From Auricularia sp. M13 (Eukaryota; Basidiomycota; Agaricomycetes; Auriculariales; Auriculariaceae), in contig CM073203.1 of NCBI GenBank assembly GCA_037042915.1, forward strand, positions 2,356,001 through 2,420,000: a stretch of 64,000 nt of DNA, given 5' to 3'. The notes beneath the pieces are model-generated. The model was not told the DNA's origin. It saw only the letters and a list, made by a program, of their open reading frames with translations, and did not search any database. Position numbers and translations under genes: made by a program. How positions within the stretch are numbered: position 1 is the first letter of the stretch; each line of letters begins with the position of its first letter. Shown here one piece after another: positions 4,562 to 19,107 of this stretch.

Positions 4562-5020
4562 GCTGGCCGACTCGCCACGGTAAATCCCGCAGGTTGCACT
4601 CAATCCCCCCCCGCCTTGGTCGAACCCCCCGTCCGCATCGACGTTGACAAACACACGCGCACACACACACATCCACGCGCACAACCATAGACACTTCAAA
4701 CTCTCTTGTATCAGTCACTTGACGATGTTGAAATACGTTGTAGCTTGTGAGTTTTCTTGAGCATAAATCCGACTGCTCTCGTCGTCGGGTTTATGTCTCT
4801 GTAGTTCTTCGTAGCTGGGTGATCAGCATGATCATTCGCCTGGTCGCCCTGTACAATGTATCTATCACTCGTATCAAATCGTTCTTTGTTACGGAGCCGC
4901 CCGACTCGGACAGACTCTTGGAGGCCTCCGCAAACATGCAAGTCCCGCAGAGGTGACGCGCCCCACCTACTTTCTGCTCAGCTCTGACCCGCTCGCAGGG
5001 GACCCACTTCGGACGGGGAA

Positions 5021-5659
5021 ATGAATGTAGTCCCAGAAGGATACGAAGAATTCGAATGCAAACTCTGCAACATCTTCTACTCTCGCGAAGAAGATCTCCA
5101 CCTGCACCGTGCCGATTATCATAAAGACATCTACTGCGTCGACTGTCAGCGCATGTTCAAGTCGCCGAACAACCTCCGGGTCCATCGTCGTTCCAGCATC
5201 CATATCGGCGCCAACGTGCACTGCTTGGCCGGGTGCAGAAAGATGTTTGGCCTTGTCTCCGCCATGTGGCTGCACATCGAGCGCGGTGGATGTCCCACGG
5301 CCGTCACAGCACTCGGCAACGCTATCGACAATCTCATCCAAGTCGACATCGAGAACAGCATCGTCAAGCCCGGTATCCAGCTCAGTGATGTGCGGACGAT
5401 GCGGTGGATGGTGTCGCCTGACATGTTCGACACGGATACCAAACTATGGCATTGCTACATGTGCAACAAGACCACTGTAGGCCCCGGATACATGCAGATG
5501 CACCTTGACGGCGGTTCGCACGACCGTAACGTATTCCGCTGCCCGGATTCCCAATGCCGCAAGGAAAGCAGCACCATCAGTACTCTCATGAGGCACTGGG
5601 AGAAGAAGGATTGCCGCGGGTATAAGATTGCAAGGAAGGTCTTCCAAGGAAGGAATTAG
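5021..5659 (+). CDS. C2H2-type zinc-finger protein
   Basis: This single-exon frame of 212 residues holds about five C2H2-like units. They are: FECKLCNIFYSREEDLHLH (residues 11-29), YCVDCQRMFKSPNNLRVH (about 39-56), HCLAGCRKMFGLVSAMWLH (about 66-84), WHCYMCNKTTVGPGYMQMH (about 143-161) and FRCPDSQCRKESSTISTLM with a trailing H (about 172-194). The first two have regular Cys-x2-Cys spacing; the third and fifth have wider Cys spacing. The 60 residues between units three and four contain no cysteine pairs. This layout is common in expanded agaricomycete C2H2 families whose targets are unknown. Nucleic-acid binding is the family expectation. No nuclear localisation signal is obvious. Confidence 0.85.
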   Translation: MNVVPEGYEEFECKLCNIFYSREEDLHLHRADYHKDIYCVDCQRMFKSPNNLRVHRRSSIHIGANVHCLAGCRKMFGLVSAMWLHIERGGCPTAVTALGNAIDNLIQVDIENSIVKPGIQLSDVRTMRWMVSPDMFDTDTKLWHCYMCNKTTVGPGYMQMHLDGGSHDRNVFRCPDSQCRKESSTISTLMRHWEKKDCRGYKIARKVFQGRN

Positions 5660-7300: not shown

Positions 7301-7847
7301 CCAGAGGAGCGTGAGGTGATTTCCCCGTCTCTAAAAGGAGATTGCATCCGGTTTTGACAGCTAAGGCAAGTTTTGGTAACTATACGAATATTGAATATCT
7401 GTGCAGCTTTCATGCAACTGACGTGTCTAATATGCATGCACAAATTCCGACATTCGTGCTCTATAACGCTGGAGAGAAGCTCATATCGTTCGCGGGAGCG
7501 GACCGCGAGGCATTGACCAACATGTTCGGCGTACCGTTGACGCCCGTGACGTCCTCGCGGCGCCGTCATTCCTGATTGCTACTGGGGATAAAACAGTTCG
7601 CAGACTGTCGACCTGAGCAAGCAGATTGTACCAGTAAGAGAAGAAGATAACTGTTAGATACTTAACCCGAACCAGCTCAAGTCCAAGTTTACGAGGCTGC
7701 ACAACTTGAAGCTCGAAGCTCGAAGCTTGAAGTCTGACGATTAATCACAAAGAGAAGTTCATGGTAAATGAGATATATAAATATTTAATACTTAGTACAA
7801 CCATGAGGGAGCGTGCGTGTTGGGTTCAAGGGCAATTCATTTTCACT

Positions 7848-10800
7848 TTACTCGTCAAACTCGATGTGGAACCGGCCGAGGCTGAGCACGCGGCGGCGGC
7901 GCGGCGCGTGGAGCGTCGGCTGGGCGAGCGTGTTGCACGTCTCGGTCGGCGGGTCGCTGGGCTCCGGCGCCGACGGCGTCGTCGAGGTCACGGGCGGGTC
8001 GTCGGCGGGCGGAGCGGGAGCGGGAGTGGTGGTGGGTCCTGGCGCAGAGCCGCCGGGAACGGAGACCGTCGATGTCGGGGCGACGGTGGCCGGCGGCTGC
8101 GCGGCGGCCAGAGTGGGCGTCGGGTCGCACGCGGCCTTAAGACCCTGGGGGAACATCTGCAGTGCGACGGTCTGCAGCGAGTCGATCTCCTGAGCGGGGA
8201 CGGTGCCGACGTAGGCTACGAGAAGAAAAGCGTGAGCTATCGGGAGACTTGGGTAGACGATTTGGCGCACCATTGAAGTTGTAAATGCCGCACGGGCACT
8301 CATCCGTGATCGGCATGAGCGAGACATCGGAGAAGACCTCCTTGCCGTCGCGCGTGAGCGCGAATGCCTGGGCGCCGATGCCCATGTCGACGGAGAAGGC
8401 GGACGCGCCAGCGGGCGCGTCGAAGGTGTAGAGGACGCCGCCCGAGTTGACGGAGACGCTTCCGGGAGCAGTGAGCAGCGGGACGACGAAGACCTTGTCC
8501 TCCATGATCTCGAAGCCGTCAGGGCGACCCATGAAGTAGTTGCCGGTGCTGTTGTCGGCCGGGCCCATGGTGGTATCGGTCGAGTCGCAGTTGACGTCCT
8601 TGGGAGTGCGGCGGTACCAGTAGATGACCTGGTCCTCCGTGATGTACTGCGAAACGTCGGTGCTGCCAGCCTTGTATGCCTTGATGAACGGAATGGCCAT
8701 GTCGAGCCAGCCACCGTGAGGCCTGTTGCAGGACTCAGCTTTCCGCAGCGCACACACGAAGCGATAGTTACTCACATGTCATTCACCCACTTCGAGCCAC
8801 CGTCGTCGGTGTGCGGCGAGTTGAGCGGGCCGATGTAGTGGCTTTCGCCGTAGTCGTTCCAGGTAACGATCTCGATGAAGGTCGGCTGGAGCGTGAGGAT
8901 TTCTTGCCAGCGGTTGTACCAGAGGAGGTCGCCTGGGAAGACCCAGTTCTTCGAGTACGGGACCTCAGAGCCGAAGTGCGTCGAGAACCAAGGCGATACC
9001 TGCAACCATGGTCAGGATGTGCAATTACTGCGCTATAAAAACCTTCGTACCGGAGCGATCAGGCCCTTGCCCGGGCCGAGCTCAGCGAGGTAGGCCTTGT
9101 CGCCTTCGAGCACAGTGACCTCCTTGCCGCCCTTCGGCGCTTTGTTGTTGCCGTCGTTGGGCCATCCCATCCAGTTAAGAGCACCGTCGAGCTTGGAGAA
9201 GTCGCCCATGCCAGGGTGGAAATTCGGCGCCATGTAGAGGTCCATGCCGGCGGTCGCGCGGACGGTGTCGACGTCAAGGGCGTCACCCGCGAACGAAGAG
9301 ACGAAGACCTTGCCGTCGACCTTGAGCTGAGCCGGGAGGACACCGTACTTCTTGACCATCTCGCCGACGCGGCCAGCTTCGCTAGCGTCCTTGAACCAGT
9401 TGAAGTCGAACGAAATGAAGACCTTCATGTCGTTGTTGGCCGCAGACTCGTAAGCGTAGCCAAGTTGGGTCTGTAGCACGTATGATGTGGTCAGTGGACA
9501 GCTTCCAAAGTGCGATTGAAGGGCGTACGTCAGTGTACGGGTCAACACCGATGTTGAGCGCAAACGCGTCGATGCCGATAGCCTTCGCGCGCTTCATGTC
9601 GTCGTCGAAGTCAGCTGCGCTCTGACGGTTGGAAACGATGCCGATCATGAAGTGCGAGAACACTACGGGACATTCAGCTAAGCAACGCAGCGTGCTGAAC
9701 ATCAGGACATACCGAGCTTGGACGAGCTGTTGCCTGCGTTTCCACCGCCCGACGGAGGAGGAGGCGGGTCAGCCGGGCCCGGGGGCGAGGGCGCATCAGT
9801 CTGGCCAGGAGCAGGGGCCTCGGTCGGCGTAGGAACTGGGTCAGACGTGACGGGCGGCTGAGGCGCTGGGTCGGACGTGACCGGCGGCTGAGGAGCTGGG
9901 TCGGACGTGACCGGCGGCGACGGGTCAGTCGGCGGGGGCGTGGGAGCAGAGGTCGAGCCTCCGGGGACAGAGACGGTCTTCGTCGGCGCAACAGTGGCCG
10001 GCGGCTGCGCGGCGGCCAGAGTGGGCGTCGGGTCGCACGCGGCCTTCAGCCCTTGAGGGAACATCTGCAGCGCGACGGTCTGCAGCGAGTCGATCTCCTG
10101 AGCGGGGACGGTGCCGACATAGGCTACGAGAATGAAAAGCGTGAGCTATCGGAAGACTTGGGTAGACGATCTGGCGCACCATTGAAGTTGTAGATACCGC
10201 AAGGGCACTCGTCCGTGATCGGCATGAGCGAGACATCGGAGAAGACCTCCTTGCCATCACGAGTAAGAGCGAAAGCCTGGGCACCGATGCCCATGTCGAC
10301 GGCGAACGAAGAGGCGCCGGCCGGAGCGTCGAAGGTGTAGGCAACACCACCAGAGTTGACGGTGACAGTACCGGGCGCGGTGAGAAGCGGGACGACAAAG
10401 ACCTTGTCCTCCATGATCTCGAAGCCGTCCGGACGACCCATGAAGTAGTTGCCAGTCGAGTTGTCAGCCGGGCCCATGGTCGTGTCCGTGGAGTCGCAGT
10501 TGACGTCCTTCGGCGTGCGGCGGTACCAGTAGATGACTTGATCCTTGTCAATGAACTTCGAAACGTCGGTGCTGCCAGACTTGTACGCCTTGATGAAGGG
10601 AATGGCCATGTCGAGCCATCCACCGTGAGGCCTATGGAGCGCGTTAGTGGTACGCCACCACTCAAACAAGGAAGACTCACATGTCGTTCACCCACTTCGA
10701 GCCGCCATCGTCGGTGTGCGGCGAGTTGAGCGGGCCGATGTAGTGGCTCTCGCCGTAGTCATTCCACGTGACGATTTCAATGAAGGTCGGCTTGAGCGTG

Positions 10801-13578
10801 AGGATCTCTTGCCAGCGGTTGTACCAGAGAAGGTCACCGGGGAAGACCCAGTTCTTCGAGTACGGGACCTCAGAGCCGAAGTGCGTGGAGAACCAGGGCG
10901 AGACCTAAGGATATCGTAAGTATAAGGAATTTTTGGGAATGAAACGGCTTACAGGAGCGATGAGGCCCTTGCCGCTGCCGAGCTCCTTGAGGTAGGCTTG
11001 GTCACCTTCCAAGACCGTAACTTCCTTGCCGTCCTTCGGCGCCTTGTTGTTACCGTCGTTGGGCCATCCCATCCAGTTGAGGGCGCCGTCGAGCTTGGAG
11101 AAGTCGCCCATACCAGGGTGGAAGTTAGGCGCCATGTAGAGGTCCATGCCAGCGGTCGCGCGGACGGTGTCAACGTCGAGGGCATCGCCGGCGAACGACG
11201 AGACGAAGACCTTGCCGTCGACCTTGAGCTGAGCTGGGAGGACACCGTACTTCTTGACCATCTCGCCGACGCGGCCGGCCTCGCTAGCGTCCTTGAACCA
11301 GTTGAAGTCGAACGAAATGAAGACCTTCATGTCGTTGTTGGCCGCAGACTCGTAAGCGTAACCGAGTTGGGTCTACACCGTAGATAACTCTGTGAGCATG
11401 CATCTCGTGTGTAGAAGATTAACCAATACGCACGTCAGTGTAAGGGTCAACACCGATGTTCAGCGCAAACGCGTCAATGCCGATGGCCTTGGCGCGCTTC
11501 ATGTCGTCGTCGAAGTCAGCCGCGCTCTGACGGTTGGAGACGATGCCAATCATGAAGTGGGAGAAGCTACAAAGTCAATTAGCAAGTGCTCATAAAGGAG
11601 TTGGTGTACATACACAAGCTGGCTGTTGCCATCGCCGGCGGGCGGAGCAGGCGCGGGGTCGGTCGGCGGGGCCGGGTCCGAAGGAGCGGGGTCAGAGGGA
11701 ACGGGGTCCGAGGGTGCTGGGTCAGAGGGAGCAGGGTCCGACGGGGCCGGGTCCGAGGGCGCTGGGTCCGAGGGAGCGGGGTCCGAAGGAGGCGCGGGAG
11801 CGCTCGAACCTCCACCAACGACAGTACCGACGTAGATGTTGAAGTTGTTTACCTAAAGCACCTCTCAGCTACCGAATGCTATGAGCGACACTCGACGCTC
11901 GTACCTCGCACTGGTCAGAGATATCCAGGCCACCGTCGCCAGACAGCACGTTGGCGCCGTCGCGGGTGAGCGCGAACGACTGCTTGCCGACGCCCATGGG
12001 CGCGGAGACAGTCGTCACACCAGCCGGGGCGTCGATCTCGGTGGTCGTGCCGCCGGAGGTGATGACGACCTTGCCGGGAGCCGTGAGCATGGCGATGACG
12101 AAGACGGAGTCGCCGTCGAAGTCGGCGCCGTTGGGCGGCGCAACGGGGTCGGAGCACGTGGCGCCCTTCGGGGCGGGACGGTAGTAGTAGACAAGTTCGT
12201 CCTTCTCGACGGTGACAGACTTCTCGCCCGCCTTGAACGCCTTGATGTACGCAGCGGCGACATCGCGCAGGCCGTCGTGAGGCATGTCGCGGACCCACTT
12301 GACTGCGCCAGTCGGGCCACCAGCATAGCTGAGAGATCGAACGGTAAGCAGGGACTCGTTTCCTTCATACGTCCCGACTTACACATGCTCGTCCTCAGGA
12401 TGGAGAGGGCCGATGTAGTGAGACTCGCCGAAATCTACGCAGCAAAGTCAGAATCCATGATGAGATGTTGACAGTCGGGACCGAACTCACCGTTCCAGGT
12501 GATGATCTCGATGAACTGCGGCGCCATCTGCAGAATCTGGTCCCAGCGCGAACCCCAGAGGTAGTCCGAGTAGAAGATCCAGTTCTTGCTGTAGGTGTCC
12601 GGACCGTAGTGCGTGAAGAACCACGGCGAAACGGCTACGTTCATGATTGAGAACCAGCACAAACTCGCGAACAAAGTCACTCACGAGCCATGTATGGCTT
12701 TCCGCCGAGGTTCTTGATGTACTCGTTGTCGAGGTCGGTGGTCATGTTGCTGTTGATCGGCTGGTTGCCTGTGTTCGGCCACTGCACGCACACGCATGAG
12801 GACAGTTATCGAGATGACGATGCTGGGAGACTCACAGCAGACCAGGAGAAACCGCAATCGGCCTCGCCGTTGATGAACGAGCCGGGCTGCCAGTTCGGGC
12901 AGGCGAAGAGAGGAACGCCTGCAGCGGACTCTGCAGCGCGCCATGGGAAGTTGTCGCTGGAGTGGCGGTATGAGTGGCGCAATCCCGGGCTTGACGAGCT
13001 CAAACATTTGACATACCCGACAAAAGACGACACAAAATGCTTTCCGTCGTACTTAAGCTGGCCGGGGGAAGAGTCAAACTTCTTGATGTACTCGCCAATG
13101 AGGCCGACGTCTCCCGCGTTCCAGTAAGCGAAGTCGAAGCTAATGAAAACCTTGAAGCCGGTGGCTTCAGCAGCGGCGTAGGCGTAACCCAGCTGCTCAT
13201 CGTTGTACTTGTCCTTGCCTGTCAGTCAAAGCGCAGCAACTCGTGAGCAATTCCATCAGCGACCTTGCATTGCGCTTTGACGTACCAATGTTGAGAGCGA
13301 ATGCATCAATGCCGATGGAAGCGGCGAGCTTCATGTCGGCCTCCCTGCACGCTCAACATTGTCAGGAACCATCCAGAGGTGAACACGGTGTGAGGTGCGA
13401 CGCACCAAGCGGCCTGATCGTACGTCTCGACGATACCGACCATGAAGTGCGCGGCGACAAGCTTTCCGCTGTCCGCGCGCTTCTCCGCGGCGCGCGCAGG
13501 AGTGTTGGCAGGCAGTGCATTGACAAAGGCACCAGAAGTTAAAAGTGCGGTGGAGAGAAGCGACCTCGAAAGCCGCAT
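7848..13578 (-). CDS. triple-domain GH71 alpha-1,3-glucanase (mutanase)
   Basis: I read one secreted protein of roughly 1,550 residues with about 18 short introns. It begins at the ATG at 13578 with a signal peptide (LSRSLLSTALLTSGAFVNAL). Three GH71 catalytic domains follow: domain 1 about 13480-11830, domain 2 about 11560-10110, domain 3 about 9675-8200. Each shows family landmarks: HFM(V/I)GIV near the start, GIDAFALNIG, KVFISFDF, VSPWF and TWND(Y/F)GESHYIGP. GH71 enzymes cleave alpha-1,3-glucan of fungal walls. The linkers are Pro-rich: SDPAP repeats after domain 1, and PPVTSDPAPQ repeats after domain 2. Each linker runs into the next domain through an in-phase GT-AG intron (NSQL then VFSHFMIG; SSKL then VFSHFMIG). 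Domains 2 and 3 have no start codon, signal peptide or promoter of their own. Domains 2 and 3 are nearly identical; domain 1 is diverged. The tail after domain 3 is basic and ends GRFHIEFDE at 7848. Three separate genes is the alternative, but it fits less well. Confidence 0.82.
9830..9925. repeat. 30-bp repeat in GH71 linker 2
   Basis: A 30-bp unit is repeated about three times on the minus strand and encodes PPVTSDPAPQ. It lies between GH71 domains 2 and 3 and forms an extended, probably O-glycosylated spacer. Confidence 0.7.
11650..11795. repeat. 15-bp repeat in GH71 linker 1
   Basis: About nine units of a 15-bp motif encode SDPAP or SDPVP on the minus strand. They form the spacer between GH71 domains 1 and 2. 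Such coding minisatellites commonly vary in copy number between strains. Confidence 0.75.
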
Positions 13579-13669
13579 CGTCGCTGAGAAAAGAAAAAAA
13601 TGAAGAAGAAAGAAAAGCGACGATGGGAGAAGGGAGAATTGGGAGAACACGGGCTCGGGCACGCTCGCC

Positions 13670-13676
13670 CTTATAT
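13670..13676 (-). promoter_or_regulatory. TATA box of the GH71 gene
   Basis: The minus strand reads CATATAAGGG about 95 bp upstream of the ATG at 13578. It is the only TATA-like box at a sensible distance upstream of any of the three GH71 domains, which supports a single transcript. Confidence 0.5.
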
Positions 13677-13699
13677 GAAGTGCGCAGCAGGCATCCTGC

Positions 13700-14747
13700 C
13701 CATCAGGTGATTGACAAAAAGGTGCCGGGTAAGGACGCTATCTCGGAAGAGAAGCAGAGGCCCATCAGCATTGAGAGAGATAAACTGCAGTGGTTGTCAT
13801 GATGCTTCTTCTTAAAGACAACACTGCCCCGCGGAGTGAAGATTAATGCAAGTCGGCAGCGAAAGCAATTGCCTCCAGAACGCAGCAACATTTCACAGAT
13901 GGGAGCTGGTCGAACTGAGAGCATGCGTCGGATCAAGGATATGGGTCAGCGAATGAGATAGATTCGCCCAAGTCCCAGTTAGGCAAAAGTATGACCGTCA
14001 TAGCAACGCATGGTCCCGAAGGACCGTATAGATCGTCCAGCAATTGACAGTGGCGTTGCTCGTGAGGTGATGCATTATCTGAGCTGGCACGGTGACGGCC
14101 AGGTGCGACTGAGATCCCGCTGACTATTCAGGCGCACGATGCGCGGAAGTGCGGAGGCGTCATATAGCCCATTCAAGACATATGGATGCAGATGGTTTGG
14201 CGACTGAGCGCTAGTGAGCACTGCAGAGATGCGCCAGCGAAGTTGAGCCAGTTTTGCGAGCAGAGCGGCAACAAATAGCCGTAAACAGCATTTTCGGCCC
14301 TGCTCTGGCCGCCGAGCAAAATGCTGGCCGTGGCTCGTAGATATTACGCTCCAGTGGTGTTTCATATTATCGAGCCTCGATGCGCACTGGGAATAATGCC
14401 AGCCTGAGCTCCAACTTCTGAAGGGCCCGATAATCAGAGTGATCATTAACCATTTTCCCGTCATGGTCTTGTTCAAAGCCTCCTGTTGGTTACTTACAGA
14501 TGGGATGGGCACGAGCCTAGGGAAGACAGTGCTCTCCTGCCCAGCCTTGCGAGAAATCCTCCGAGTTTACTGTCGAGGTACCTATGCGGTTCTTCGAAAG
14601 GAATGAGCAGGATTGACGGCGCGAAAGTCTGAAGCCAGTTGTTCGAAGGGACCAGATCTACGACTTAGCAGGCTGGAGTTGACGTTGCTACGTGCTCTTA
14701 GATTACAGTTTATTCCGTCTGAGTCTAGTTCCACTTCCACAGCACAA
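13700..14747. other. intergenic region, nothing recognised
   Basis: This stretch holds the upstream region of the GH71 gene and the 3' flank of the HRD3 gene. Open frames up to 145 codons occur but show no protein family or exon-like structure. Confidence 0.45.
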
Positions 14748-17700
14748 TCACAGTACGACACCTTGAGGCTGGAAGGGCGGTTGCGGCGGTGGTGCACCAG
14801 CAGCAGCAGCAGCATTCTGCTCCTCTTCCTGCCGTCTTCGCTCCGCCCACCGTCCGCGCGCCCACATGAGGCCCGTGACAGTGGCGCAGAGCAGCAGCAG
14901 AATGACCGTGTCCGAGAAGTCGTCCTCCTCCTCCCCATCATCGTTGTGTCTCCTCGGGCGCGGGTTGCCATCCCAGTAATCGTCCGCGCCGTACTCGTCT
15001 TGGGCGGCGGCGGCCTCGGCATTGCGCCGCTCGCGCGCCCACTGGATGGGGTCCTCGTCCGGCGTCGGCTCGCGGTCGGCGTCCACGGGCCCTCCGCCCT
15101 GCTCGCCGCCGTCCGCCTGGCCACCCTCGCCGACCTGGCCGCCCTCTTGCGCGCCCTTTCCGCCGGCCGCGTCGCCGCCCTTGCGCCCGCGCAGCCGCCG
15201 CACGAGCTCCTCCTTCGCGCGCCGGAGATGGCCGCCCTCCTCGTCGCCGTCGTCGCCCCACACGCTCAGCGCGCGCTGCTTGCCGCCGGTTCCCGTCAGC
15301 GACGCCCACAGCGCGCGCGCGTGCAGCTTGACGAGCGAGAGCACGATCGGGAAGTACGCCTCGGCGTTCGTCTCGAGCGCCATGTCGTAGTAGCGCTTCG
15401 CCAGGTGGAAATCTTGCGTCACGCCGCGTCCATTCTCGTACATCCATCCCAGGTTCCACATGGCCAGCGCGCTCACGTGCGTCTCCACGGCCGAGTGGTA
15501 GTACCCTGCAGCCTTCTCCCACCGCAACGCCTCAGGCTCGTCTTCGACGCCCAGACCGTGGTAGTAGTAATCCCCGACCTTGACCAACGCGTCGATGTTG
15601 CGCTGTGCTGAGGAGCGCATCCAGAATTTGAGCGCCACACGTGCCGTTTCATTGTTGACCGGCGTCGCAAACGGCGTATGACGCAGGCTGTTCTTGTCTG
15701 CGCAGAAGCTCGTCAGCGGCATGCGTGTCGACAAAGGACAAGAAAATACCCTGGTCGAGGACGTAGGCCAAGTTGTTCTGTGCGGACTCGTAGCCCCGCT
15801 CAGCAGCTAAGTACCACCGGAGAATGGCACCCTCTTTATCATCGCGGAACCACAGCGCCTCGGCCTCGCCCAGAAGGTCCTCAAGCCACGAGCCGCGCTC
15901 CACGACGTGCTTGTAGAACGAGACCGCGTACGAGCACGATCCCAAAAGTCCGGCGGTCTTGTACGCATTGGCAGCGTGGATTTGCGCAATGTAGTAGTAC
16001 GCCTCGAACGGCGAGCCGTTCTTGATAGCATGCTCGAAATACATGATCGCGTGCTGCAGGTCGCCGCGCTCTACATATACAATCATCAGCGGAAGGCCAG
16101 AACCAGGAAGTCAAGACGTACGATAATAATGCTTGCCGAGGTTGACCTGGGCCTCTGCGTGGTCTTGGTTGGCAGCGATGGCAAATTGCGCGAGCATCTT
16201 CTTCGTATCCTTGACGCCGTCGACGAGACCGTCGCGCCAAATAATACCCAGCCCATTCGCGCACTCGGCGTTGGCGTTCTCCGCGCCGCGCTCGAACCAC
16301 ATCTTCGCGACGCGCGCGTCCTGCTTGACGCCCTCGCCGCGCAGGTACATCCGACCGAGGTACGCGCTCGCGATGCCCGCGGCGATCTTCTGGCCGTCCG
16401 TCGCACCGTCGCGCCGGTGCGAGAGCGGGCTCGCCGGGTTGTCGCGCGGCCAGACGTGGCGCGCAATGCGCAGGAAATATGCGCGCGCGCGGTGGTAGTC
16501 GCGCGGGACGGCGCCCACGGCCTCCGCCCCGCCCGAGATCCCGCCTCCTACGGTGTACAGGCTGCCCTGGTAGAAGATGCGCCCCAGCCGCAGACCGAAC
16601 TCGATGTCGCCCCGGTCTGCGTTAAACTGCAACAGGTGAGGGCTGATTCTTGCCAAGAATGCAACAATTGGCTTACCTGGTAATACTCGACGACGTCGGA
16701 CCATTTCTCGCCTGCAGCGCGGGCGCGGTAGGCGCGAATAACGTTCCGGTTAATATTCATGCCCGTCGACGCCACACTCGCGCCAATACCGTGCACGCCG
16801 CCGTCGAAATCTGACAAGCGCGTTGGCAGCAACGGCAGTGAACGACCGCCCGGAGGCCCGTTCAGGAAGGCAGTCATGGCTACAGACGACATTAGCGATT
16901 GAGCAAAGCGTTCGCAGGGCGCATACCTTTATCAGCAGCCGACTCATACCACTGCAGCGCAGCCATGCAGTCTTCTTTGACGCCAATTCCCGACCAATAC
17001 CTGAAGCCCAGCGACATTTCTGCGCCATAGTCGCCGGCATTGGCGGCGAATGTGTAGTACAACAGCGCTTTCGCCTGGTCAGCCGTTGTCGCGTTGCCGT
17101 AGCCTGTTGCGTGGAAAAATGCGACCATGGCTTGCGAAGTAGCGTTGCCTGTGAGTGATGCATGCTGGGAGAACAGATTGAAAGCGCGTTTTGGGTGTCG
17201 AGGTAATATTGCGGGTGGGAACTATGACAAGTCAATAAAATATGGGCCAGGAGAGCCAATACAGCGTACTAATGATATGTGAGCCAGCTTGAAGAGAGCG
17301 TCGAGGTTGCCCAAGTCCGAGGAGTATTGCAACAAGTCAATAACTTTGGAGGCGCGCCGCCGGGCGTCCTCGTGTCGTCTAGAGGTAATGGCCTCCTTTC
17401 CAGTCACATAGCCAATAGCCCGGGAGATCCAAGGCTGATATATGAGCCGCAGTGCTATTCGAAGGGCACCGGATATGGGACCCTGGTACGAGGAGAACAA
17501 AGCAGCCTCGCCGTCGGTGTTCTGCGTCGGCAATGGTGTCGAGGGCAACGAATCAAGCGTATGCAAGGCTCTTTCATAAGCCTTAGCAGCTGAGACGGTC
17601 GTTCAGAGCGAATACACTGGTTGCAGGCTCAAGCCAAGTACCTTCGGCTGCTCGATCGACAGTATCTGGTGTTGCCTGCCGAATATTAGCTTATGCTGAT

Positions 17701-17812
17701 TTCATGATATTTCGCGCACATTATCGGCTGTGCCTTCGCTTCCCAGAGGCTCCTGGGTGGCTTGCGCCAGGACGCTCGGGGCGAGCAGAACGACGAAGAG
17801 AGCCTTGCGCAT
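14748..17812 (-). CDS. HRD3: HRD3/SEL1L-like ERAD adaptor with Sel1 repeats
   Basis: A multi-exon gene runs from the ATG at 17812 to the stop at 14748. It starts with a signal peptide (MRKALFVVLLAPSVLAQA). Two short introns bring in AYERALHTLDSLPSTPLPTQ in phase. Sel1-type repeats follow over most of the length, for example LGFRYWSGIGVKEDCMAAL, GDYYYHGLGVEDEPEAL and LGWMYENGRGVTQDFHLAKR. Near the C-terminus comes an acidic, low-complexity stretch, then one membrane segment (TVILLLLCATVTGLM) and a short basic, Pro-rich tail. Signal peptide, Sel1 array and C-terminal membrane anchor match HRD3/SEL1L. That protein recruits misfolded ER substrates to the HRD1 ubiquitin ligase from the luminal side. 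I infer orthology from this architecture. The gene looks intact. Confidence 0.85.
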
Positions 17813-18256
17813 ACGTGGTTCGGCTACTGCCGATTGCGCGTTCTGGCTCTTGGCGTCCCGCCACGTGGAAGTCCAAATTCAAGGGCTCAGTTTCTATCCA
17901 CATATTCCGGCGAACAGACTCCTTCTCATTTTTCTTACTCATGATCAGTTTGTCTTCAGAATCAAGGTTGTGACGGCAGTTACTGTCTCAGCGGCGCCGG
18001 AAGTGGTACTACGGTAGCGTATTGCTACGTTCCGCAGGCCCTTGTTCGAGTGAACGTCTCGTTGTATCTGGTATAGTTCAGGCGTGTGAAGAACACAAGA
18101 CAGCGCGTTTTGATGTCGTTGCATCGTTCTTTTGCAGAGCCTGAGACTGTGTTATTGGATTCTTTTCTAGGCCCGAGCTAATTATCTAGTACAAGACCAG
18201 CCACACTAGGCACACCCCCCTATTCACCTCTCCTCTCCCTCTGACCTTACCCCACG

Positions 18257-19107
18257 ATGACCCCAACAAGACGCAGGCTCTCAATTTCGTCTCTGTCGTC
18301 CGTCGCGTACGGCTGCGTTAAGCTCGGCCTCGGTGTCACTGTGGCCGCTGGCGCTGTGGCATATGCTGCCGTTCAGGTTTACCGCGGGTTCGTCTCTGCT
18401 GTCTGACACTGTCGGCATGCCCTCATTATATCGCAGGCCTCACGCCCTAGAAGAGGACGACTTTACCACTACTCACGATGCAAATGACATGAAGACCAAG
18501 ACAAACGGTGTATCACGCGCGGACGAGACGACTGAAGCGTGAGTGCGGTCTCATGCTTCGAGCTCGGCGATTGAAACCTGATTCCCCTTCGCTAGCCACA
18601 CCGTAGACAACGCCAACGACATTGCGGACGACCCCAACGAGCACTCTCACAATGCCAGCGAACATTCCGCGAGCACGCCCGAGCCCGAGCCGTGAGTACC
18701 AGTGTCGTCATAACTCACAGCATCCAGTGCTAACCGCCGCGTTTTCAAGGACGCCTCCCGACAGCCCGCTGCCCGAGACGCCCATCGACATGGTGCACCG
18801 TGACGATTCGAAGGTCGAGCAAAACCAGAAGTCTCCCTCTCCGCCGCTCCCACGACACAGGAGGAAGGTCTCGTTTGCTCCTATTCCCGAGACCGAGGAG
18901 GCAACCTTCACGTCGGAGCCCATCGCAGTCATCCAGGTTGAACCCATCGCCACGGTGAAGCCGCCGCCGCCTATGACCGAAGCAATCGCAACGCAGACCG
19001 CTCCGACAAAGACCGTCAAGAAGAATAAGAAGAAGAGCCAGAAAAAGAAGAAGACCTCAGCTCAGACTAACTCGACTCACGCTCAAAACACGGTCGTTTC
19101 GTCGTGA
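18257..19107 (+). CDS. hypothetical single-pass membrane protein with Lys-rich tail
   Basis: A four-exon gene reads MTPTRRRLSISSLSSVAYGC at its N-terminus, followed by a hydrophobic segment (VKLGLGVTVAAGAVAYAAVQ). Three GT-AG introns join in phase, the first after VYRG, the second after TTEA, the third after PEPEP. The middle is acidic and rich in S, T, P and E. The last exon contains HRRKVSFAPIPE, a pattern that resembles phosphorylation or phosphatase-docking motifs (RVxF-like KVSF). It ends with a Lys-rich cluster and STHAQNTVVSS. The length is about 230 residues. I do not recognise the family. It lies about 270 bp upstream of GPI13 on the same strand. No function is assigned. Confidence 0.7.

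What the first reader, a model, noticed from the sequence alone, without database searches (positions are those of the whole stretch)
7848..13578. One gene encoding three GH71 alpha-1,3-glucanase domains
Both proline-rich linkers run directly into the next GH71 domain through introns with GT-AG ends and matching phase (NSQL|VFSHFMIG and SSKL|VFSHFMIG). Only the first domain has a signal peptide and a TATA box. GH71 proteins I know of carry one catalytic domain, sometimes with a carbohydrate-binding module, so a triple tandem enzyme would be a processive or multivalent wall hydrolase and, as far as I know, undescribed.
Basis: partly seen in the sequence, partly recalled or inferred. Interest (0 to 1): 0.9.

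Follow-up and report, generated by a model that had tools for sequence, protein, structure and literature searches.

The report
Three-headed fungal alpha-1,3-glucanase gene
A jelly-fungus relative carries one gene that joins three complete alpha-1,3-glucan-cutting enzyme domains into a single secreted protein; the joining looks real and is shared with related fungi, and the first domain resembles chain-cutting enzymes while the other two resemble end-nibbling ones, so the protein may be a self-contained cutting machine for fungal walls.

Summary
On the minus strand, 13578-7848 gives one 19-exon model: 18 GT-AG introns of 47-67 bp, no internal stop, 1582 aa, one signal-peptide-like start, three full GH71 domains (D1, D2, D3) and two proline-rich linkers. 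The best evidence for fusion is a second copy in the same genome, 71 synonymous and 1 nonsynonymous changes apart; the linkers alone show 18 and 1, so they are translated in this frame. It is not unique: Auriculariales sp. MPI-PUGE-AT-0066 has a partial protein of the same layout (D3 cut off), and two Exidia glandulosa fragment models fit the same gene. More than one GH71 domain was rare (3 of 213 retrieved proteins). I found no description of the triple, but a 'GH71-GH71' table label is in print. New reading: the domains are of two kinds. D1 groups, with modest support, with the endo-acting AnGH71C; D2 and D3 group with a protein whose catalytic numbering matches the exo-acting AnGH71B. All three keep the DxxE dyad. 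I propose a secreted endo + exo + exo alpha-1,3-glucanase; that split is inferred. No transcript data were available.

The parts
7848..13578 (-). Whole coding region, 19 exons and 18 introns, 1582 aa
   Evidence: Gene model: all introns GT-AG, 47-67 bp, no internal stop; three PF03659 stretches
13671..13675 (-). TATAA motif, 97 nt upstream of the ATG; the only TATAA on the gene strand from 13800 to 7848
   Evidence: a motif match, not proof of a promoter
13465..13578 (-). Signal-peptide-like N-terminus and propeptide with a Kex2-like KR (aa 1-38)
   Evidence: Sequence and KR/RR scan; no signal-peptide predictor was available
11817..13464 (-). D1: GH71 domain, aa 39-436, dyad D266/E269, AnGH71C-like
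   Evidence: 9FNF match E 2.1e-125; tree, support 87/71; coordinates
11622..11816 (-). Linker 1, aa 437-501, 37% proline, 15-bp tandem repeat coding PSDPA-type units
   Evidence: 10 synonymous and 1 nonsynonymous changes between copies
11567..11613 (-). Intron 9, joins linker 1 to D2 (phase 2)
   Evidence: GT-AG kept in the second copy, TAG to CAG at the acceptor
9999..11621 (-). D2: GH71 domain with C-terminal extension, aa 502-955, dyad D737/E740, in the clade of the AnGH71B-like P0141
   Evidence: 9FNF match E 9.2e-98; trees
9720..9998 (-). Linker 2, aa 956-1048, 33% proline, 30-bp repeat inside
   Evidence: 8 synonymous and 0 nonsynonymous changes between copies
9663..9712 (-). Intron 14, joins linker 2 to D3 (phase 1)
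   Evidence: GT-AG kept, 0 of 50 positions changed in the second copy
8091..9719 (-). D3: GH71 domain, aa 1049-1502, dyad D1284/E1287, 96% identical to D2 in protein
7848..8090 (-). C-terminal tail, aa 1503-1582, proline-rich, then RRRR-VLSLGRFHIEFDE and stop
   Evidence: similar tail motif in Exidia P0095 and P0096

Best explanation
A single secreted protein carries three catalytic GH71 domains on long proline-rich tethers. D1 is of the AnGH71C type and most likely cuts inside alpha-1,3-glucan chains. D2 and D3 are near-identical, of the AnGH71B type, and most likely remove glucose stepwise from chain ends, including the ends D1 makes. Held together, the domains would supply each other with substrate at one spot on an insoluble wall. 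Shown: gene structure, frame, translation of the linkers by coding conservation, three intact catalytic dyads, two sequence subgroups. Inferred: one mature polypeptide, the endo and exo assignment, synergy, and a role in remodelling or digesting fungal walls.
For: Complete 19-exon open model; three PF03659 stretches. The second genomic copy shows 71 synonymous and 1 nonsynonymous changes, linkers 18 and 1 (binomial p 4e-9 for the linkers from simple site counts), no indels in any exon and all 18 introns GT-AG. P0001 with three GH71 stretches and Exidia P0094 running from D1 through linker 1 into D2. Dyad D and E, and the K233 and W185 equivalents, kept in D1, D2 and D3; changing a dyad residue cut activity 210- to 15,427-fold in AnGH71B and C (PMC12394665). 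D1 in one clade with 9FNF/AnGH71C (87/71), D2 and D3 with P0141 in a 14-row clade (100/99); P0141, from A. nidulans var. acristatus, has D271/E274, the numbering of AnGH71B. AnGH71B exo-like and processive, AnGH71C endo-like. No KR, RR or other dibasic pair in either linker.
Against: No transcript, peptide or activity data. Support for D1 with AnGH71C is modest, and outside its orthologues D1 is as close by identity to P0002 (53.7%), a member of the D2 clade, as to 9FNF (52.3%). G193 and N194 of AnGH71C, in the loop that closes over the substrate, are N and Q in D1 and N and N in D2 and D3. P0141 is matched to AnGH71B by residue numbers and species only. Endo or exo mode may vary within a clade. 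Other proteases could still cut the linkers. AnGH71B and C hydrolysed under 1% of insoluble alpha-1,3-glucan, so tethering alone may not make a good wall degrader. Upstream of D3 the unspliced frame stays open back to 9771 and holds one in-frame Met, so a D3-only product without a signal peptide is not formally excluded.
Confidence: 0.5

Rival explanations
1. Three separate neighbouring GH71 genes, with the linkers as tails or spacers, wrongly joined by reading across introns.
For: Exidia glandulosa database models are split (P0094 and P0095, P0095 starting at an internal Met of the domain). The frame upstream of D3 is open with one Met.
Against: Linker changes between copies are 18 synonymous to 1 nonsynonymous. 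No second TATAA on the gene strand. The unspliced frame before D2 is closed five codons upstream of the HFM motif with no Met. P0001 is modelled as one protein with three GH71 stretches.
Confidence: 0.04
2. One protein is made but is cut in the linkers after secretion, so the fungus ends up with single-domain enzymes in a fixed 1:2 ratio of D1 type to D2 type.
For: Long exposed proline-rich linkers are often protease-sensitive (general knowledge, no call). A fixed dose of two enzyme types could be useful in itself (inference).
Against: No dibasic pair in either linker, whereas KR stands in the propeptide and RRRR before the C-terminal peptide; the other KR and RR pairs lie inside D2 and D3.
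Confidence: 0.2
3. All three domains share one activity, and the repeats serve only avidity or dose on an insoluble polymer.
For: D2 and D3 are 96% identical and pair within each of three species. All dyads are intact. D1 is no closer by identity to 9FNF than to P0002 of the D2 clade.
Against: D1 is only 47-51% identical to D2 and D3 and lies in another clade, with the endo-like AnGH71C.
Confidence: 0.22
4. Assembly artefact: D3 is a false repeat of D2, or the second copy is a mis-joined haplotype that proves nothing.
For: C11 begins inside an inverted near-copy of its own 2.35-2.45 Mb region, which may be a haplotype joined to the contig end.
Against: D2 and D3 differ at 9-10% of coding bases in both copies, and linker 1 and linker 2 differ. 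The triple is also in P0001. Even if the second copy is an allele, its substitution pattern still tests the reading frame.
Confidence: 0.02

Closest known systems
Auriculariales sp. MPI-PUGE-AT-0066 GH71 protein (P0001, partial, 1236 aa)
   Same: Same order: D1, linker, D2, linker, D3; D1 74% and D2 73% identical; same L-V-F junctions
   Different: Record is partial and stops inside D3; linkers richer in Thr; its D2 and D3 are identical over the 150 aa of D3 present
Exidia glandulosa HHB12029 models P0094, P0095, P0096
   Same: P0094 runs from the C-terminal part of D1 through a linker into D2; P0095 matches D3 and its GRFHIE tail; P0096 is a single-domain relative of D2 with a similar tail
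   Different: P0094 and P0095 are separate database models on different contigs, so the triple is inferred there; P0096 has its own signal-like start and one domain
AnGH71C of Aspergillus nidulans (also called MutA; PDB 9FNF)
   Same: Best match among solved structures for D1 (E 2.1e-125) and D2 (E 9.2e-98); same dyad, K233 and W185 equivalents
   Different: Single GH71 unit; endo-like; G193 and N194 positions differ
AnGH71B of Aspergillus nidulans (P0141 taken as its likely counterpart)
   Same: P0141 lies in the same 100/99 clade as D2 and D3, 68% identical to D2; D271/E274
   Different: Single GH71 unit; that P0141 corresponds to AnGH71B is inferred
Trichoderma harzianum MutA
   Same: Secreted GH71 with a Thr-Pro-Ser-rich linker; endo-processive (PMC11837517, passages)
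   Different: One catalytic domain plus CBM24 instead of further catalytic domains
Malbranchea cinnamomea MalCi_670.57 and Phenoliferia sp. Uapishka_3 P0092
   Same: Labelled or measured as carrying more than one GH71 stretch
   Different: MalCi_670.57 is a table label only; P0092 has one stretch and part of a second in a partial record, far from D1 and D2 in the tree

Membership tests
Glycoside hydrolase family 71 (PF03659) | Sequence match to the family profile above its curated cut-off, for each domain | tested here: met
   Three stretches, 1285.8 bits in all, cut-off 34; a profile built here covers 410, 409 and 410 of 412 positions in D1, D2, D3
Glycoside hydrolase family 71 (PF03659) | Catalytic dyad DxxE | tested here: met
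   WNDFGE once and WNDYGE twice, D266/E269, D737/E740, D1284/E1287, aligned to D265/E268 of AnGH71C
Glycoside hydrolase family 71 (PF03659) | Barrel followed by a packed beta-sandwich | tested here: inconclusive
   Alignments to 9FNF span both parts, but no structure could be predicted (tool switched off)
Glycoside hydrolase family 71 (PF03659) | Hydrolysis of alpha-1,3-glucan with inversion | not testable with these tools
   Needs an assay
AnGH71C-type (endo) subgroup for D1 | Groups with AnGH71C in a tree | tested here: inconclusive
   Grouped, support 87 bootstrap / 71 SH-aLRT
AnGH71B-type (exo) subgroup for D2 and D3 | Groups with AnGH71B in a tree | tested here: inconclusive
   In a 100/99 clade with P0141; P0141 is taken as AnGH71B by D271/E274 numbering and by species (A. 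nidulans var. acristatus), not by accession
Single multi-catalytic polypeptide | Linkers translated in frame with the domains | tested here: met
   18 synonymous, 1 nonsynonymous, no indels in the linkers between the two copies
Single multi-catalytic polypeptide | One transcript and one intact secreted product | not testable with these tools

The most novel reading that the evidence does not exclude
A natural one-chain alpha-1,3-glucan degrading machine: an endo-acting GH71 domain tethered to two exo-processive GH71 domains of another subgroup, shared with at least one other Auriculariales genome, with the two exo domains kept alike within each lineage. It would be a self-synergistic enzyme built from one family and a natural test of whether tethering solves attack on insoluble alpha-1,3-glucan.
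Probability: 0.4. Interest if true: 0.65.

Novelty: new variant of a known kind. Interest (0 to 1): 0.52.

Why it matters
The two A. nidulans GH71 enzymes AnGH71B and C hydrolysed under 1% of insoluble alpha-1,3-glucan (PMC12394665), yet this polymer is part of many fungal walls and of dental plaque. A natural enzyme that joins an endo-like and two exo-like GH71 domains would show one way around that limit and would be a ready template for alpha-1,3-glucan tools. It also gives a case of same-family catalytic domains from different subgroups fused in one gene, with two of them kept nearly identical.

Tried and rejected
Considered three separate genes: rejected on linker coding conservation and the missing second TATAA. 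Considered an assembly repeat: rejected on D2-D3 divergence, the second copy and P0001.

Considered that fusion re-used an intron that stood between the signal-peptide exon and the domain of a single-copy ancestor. The D2-like single gene on C10 (L025) does seem to have an intron at that place, read by eye; its exact exon layout is not settled (it may hold a 3-nt exon), and the phase looks like 0 against 2 and 1 in the window, so this stays a suggestion.

Considered that long GH71 proteins are commonly multi-GH71: wrong. In the first two searches 2 of 93 database proteins (P0001, P0092) cover the profile more than 1.3 times; six apparent doubles (P0018, P0019, P0020, P0027, P0079, P0091) are one domain split by the profile, coverage under 1.

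The closest retrieved relatives are Exidia glandulosa proteins. The search for the strain name MPI-PUGE-AT-0066 gave one paper, by its listing unrelated. Extent of the inverted copy: matching pieces were sampled at C11 1-2 kb, 8-9 kb, 32-34 kb and 75-105 kb; a piece at C11 600 kb has no second copy; a piece at 200 kb hit a dispersed repeat and says nothing.

Full report
WHAT IS THERE. The finding lies on the minus strand. Reading from the ATG at 13578, I built a 19-exon model that ends at the stop at 7848. All 18 introns begin GT and end AG and are 47 to 67 bp long; the spliced reading frame is 4749 nt and codes for 1582 aa without an internal stop. Pfam finds Glyco_hydro_71 (PF03659) in three stretches, 1285.8 bits against a curated cut-off of 34. 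Layout: signal-like N-terminus and propeptide (aa 1-38), D1 (39-436), linker 1 (437-501), D2 (502-955), linker 2 (956-1048), D3 (1049-1502), tail (1503-1582). D2 and D3 are 96% identical; D1 is 47% identical to either by BLAST, 51% in a multiple alignment. Each keeps the frame, but their phases differ (2 and 1).

IS IT ONE GENE. The window's genome (G000, 52.1 Mb, 14 contigs) holds a second copy of the same triple at C11 about 80.6 to 85.6 kb, inverted relative to the window. The DNA around it is 98% identical over 11.6 kb (window 7392-18959); the other collinear pieces towards and beyond the left end of the window are 88-98%, and window 60-62 kb is 99%. The first base of contig C11 matches base 2,449,888; a piece at 2.440 Mb matches only at 80-83%. 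A piece at C11 600 kb has no second copy. So this is either a large inverted duplication or an allele joined to the contig end; I cannot tell which. For testing the reading frame it does not matter. Between the two copies no exon has an indel and all 18 introns keep GT-AG, one linker intron with a TAG to CAG acceptor change. Of 72 coding differences, 71 are synonymous and 1 is not. They are uneven: 3 in D1, 36 in D2, 12 in D3. In the linkers alone it is 18 to 1, with about 140 synonymous and 334 nonsynonymous sites; a binomial test with that simple site ratio gives 4e-9. Spacers between separate genes would not be expected to behave so. The only TATAA on the gene strand from 13800 to 7848 is at 13675, before D1. 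The unspliced frame before D2 is closed five codons upstream of the HFM motif; before D3 it stays open to 9771 and holds one Met, which leaves a small opening for a D3-only product without a signal peptide. No RNA data were available.

RELATIVES. A search with the whole protein, limited by the tool to proteins of 0.55 to 1.75 times its length, gave 22 hits (only the 7998 candidates sharing most words were scored). The same with words from D2 gave 86 hits among 7681 candidates, without that cut. A search with an alignment of D1, D2, D3 and two domains of P0001 gave 1522 hits among 7999 scored candidates, of which 120 were listed; its length limits shut out full triples. Of the 213 database proteins so retrieved, 3 cover a GH71 profile built here more than 1.2 times: P0001 (Auriculariales sp. 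MPI-PUGE-AT-0066, partial, three stretches), P0094 (Exidia glandulosa, C-terminal part of D1, linker, D2) and P0092 (Phenoliferia sp. Uapishka_3, partial, 1.43 times). P0095 of E. glandulosa starts at an internal Met of the domain and ends in GRFHIEIDDE, as D3 ends in GRFHIEFDE, so P0094 and P0095 together fit a split model of the same triple gene; they lie on different contigs, so this is inference. The layout is thus found in one other genome and probable in a second.

EVOLUTION. In a tree of 212 GH71 domains (quick method, SH-aLRT only) D1 of the window, P0001 and P0094 form one clade (100), while D2 and D3 pair within each species: window 98, Exidia 99, P0001 100. A 25-row careful tree repeats the window pair (99/96) and the Exidia pair (100/100). 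The single-domain Exidia protein P0096 falls among these pairs: next to the P0001 pair with support 84 in the first tree, unresolved in the second. So either D2 was duplicated separately in each lineage, or D2 and D3 are kept alike by gene conversion; the shared layout makes me favour conversion, but the place of P0096 leaves separate duplication open. A D2-like single gene in the same genome (L025, C10) seems to have an intron right after the signal-peptide exon, at the place where the linkers join D2 and D3 (read by eye). This suggests, but with differing phases does not show, that fusion used an old splice acceptor and dropped the signal-peptide exon.

HOW IT MAY WORK. AnGH71C, the first GH71 structure (PDB 9FNF), is an inverting enzyme with dyad D265/E268 (PMC12394665). 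The dyad and the K233 and W185 equivalents are present in D1, D2 and D3, so all three are probably active; the loop residues G193 and N194 are N and Q in D1 and N and N in D2 and D3. D1 lies in one clade with AnGH71C (87/71), and D2/D3 lie in a 100/99 clade with P0141 from Aspergillus nidulans var. acristatus. Against this, D1 is 53.7% identical to P0002 of the D2 clade and 52.3% to 9FNF. P0141 has its dyad at D271/E274, the residues changed in AnGH71B. AnGH71B gives mostly glucose in a processive, exo-like way; AnGH71C gives a spread of oligosaccharides, endo-like; both hydrolysed under 1% of insoluble alpha-1,3-glucan. I therefore propose endo (D1) plus exo (D2, D3) on flexible tethers. The linkers carry no dibasic pair, while KR stands in the propeptide and four arginines precede the last 13 residues. 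The endo and exo assignment by clade is the weakest step.

IN PRINT. Searches for GH71 with tandem, mutanase or glucanase (30 of 2,395 papers listed), with Auriculariales, alpha-glucan or Exidia (15 of 80 listed), for 'two GH71', 'three GH71', 'GH71 domains', 'tandem GH71' and 'GH71-GH71' (3 of 3), and for Exidia glandulosa with GH71 (none) gave no description of a triple GH71 protein in the open library; most subscription papers are not held there. PMC5683368 lists MalCi_670.57 of Malbranchea cinnamomea as GH71-GH71 in an expression table (passages seen); whether that is a true double or a split hit I cannot tell. PMC12394665 names GH18, GT4 and a DUF as additional predicted catalytic domains in GH71 proteins and does not mention a second GH71 there (section 6); its supplementary figures were not seen.

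VERDICT. A real, well-supported new domain arrangement of a known family, shared with at least one other Auriculariales genome, with a clear and testable hypothesis of divided labour.

Noticed in passing
L014 (C11:1-10000) and the window; G000 C11:1-105 kb against C11:2.342-2.450 Mb: Contig C11 begins with an inverted near-copy of its own internal region; the pieces sampled between C11 1 bp and 105 kb match at 80-99%. An allele joined to the contig end or a large inverted duplication.
   Followed up: partly
window 7848-7900 (minus strand); P0095 and P0096: A C-terminal peptide of basic residues followed by a GRF-x-[IV]-E motif is shared by the end of the triple protein, Exidia P0095 and the single-domain P0096; a pattern search of the last 25 residues found it in 2 of 213 retrieved proteins (P0001 is partial and lacks its end). 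Function unknown.
   Followed up: partly
P0001, domains 2 and 3: Identical over the 150 aa of domain 3 present, which may be recent gene conversion or an assembly effect.
   Followed up: no
L022 (C11:200001-202000) and G000 C7:2163135-2228031: A sequence repeated at steady steps of about 10.6 kb (7 copies on C7) and 10.3 kb (2 on C11), with weaker relatives on C1, C4, C8 and C9, several of them also in rows; no open stretch over 164 codons in the 2 kb read.
   Followed up: no
L001 / L002 (C11:2345914-2347098 and 102873-104057), L003 (C1:7919274-7920461): Further GH71 loci closer to D1 than to D2, matched end to end in one frame with one TGA inside; the one on C11 lies about 17 kb from the triple gene. 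More GH71 loci are on C1, C2, C3, C5, C7 and C10.
   Followed up: partly
window 14748-15803 (-) and 4988-5656 (+): Neighbours: a Sel1-repeat frame upstream and a C2H2 zinc-finger frame downstream; 2 of 4 frames scanned had a Pfam match. No sign of a glucan-related cluster in these.
   Followed up: partly
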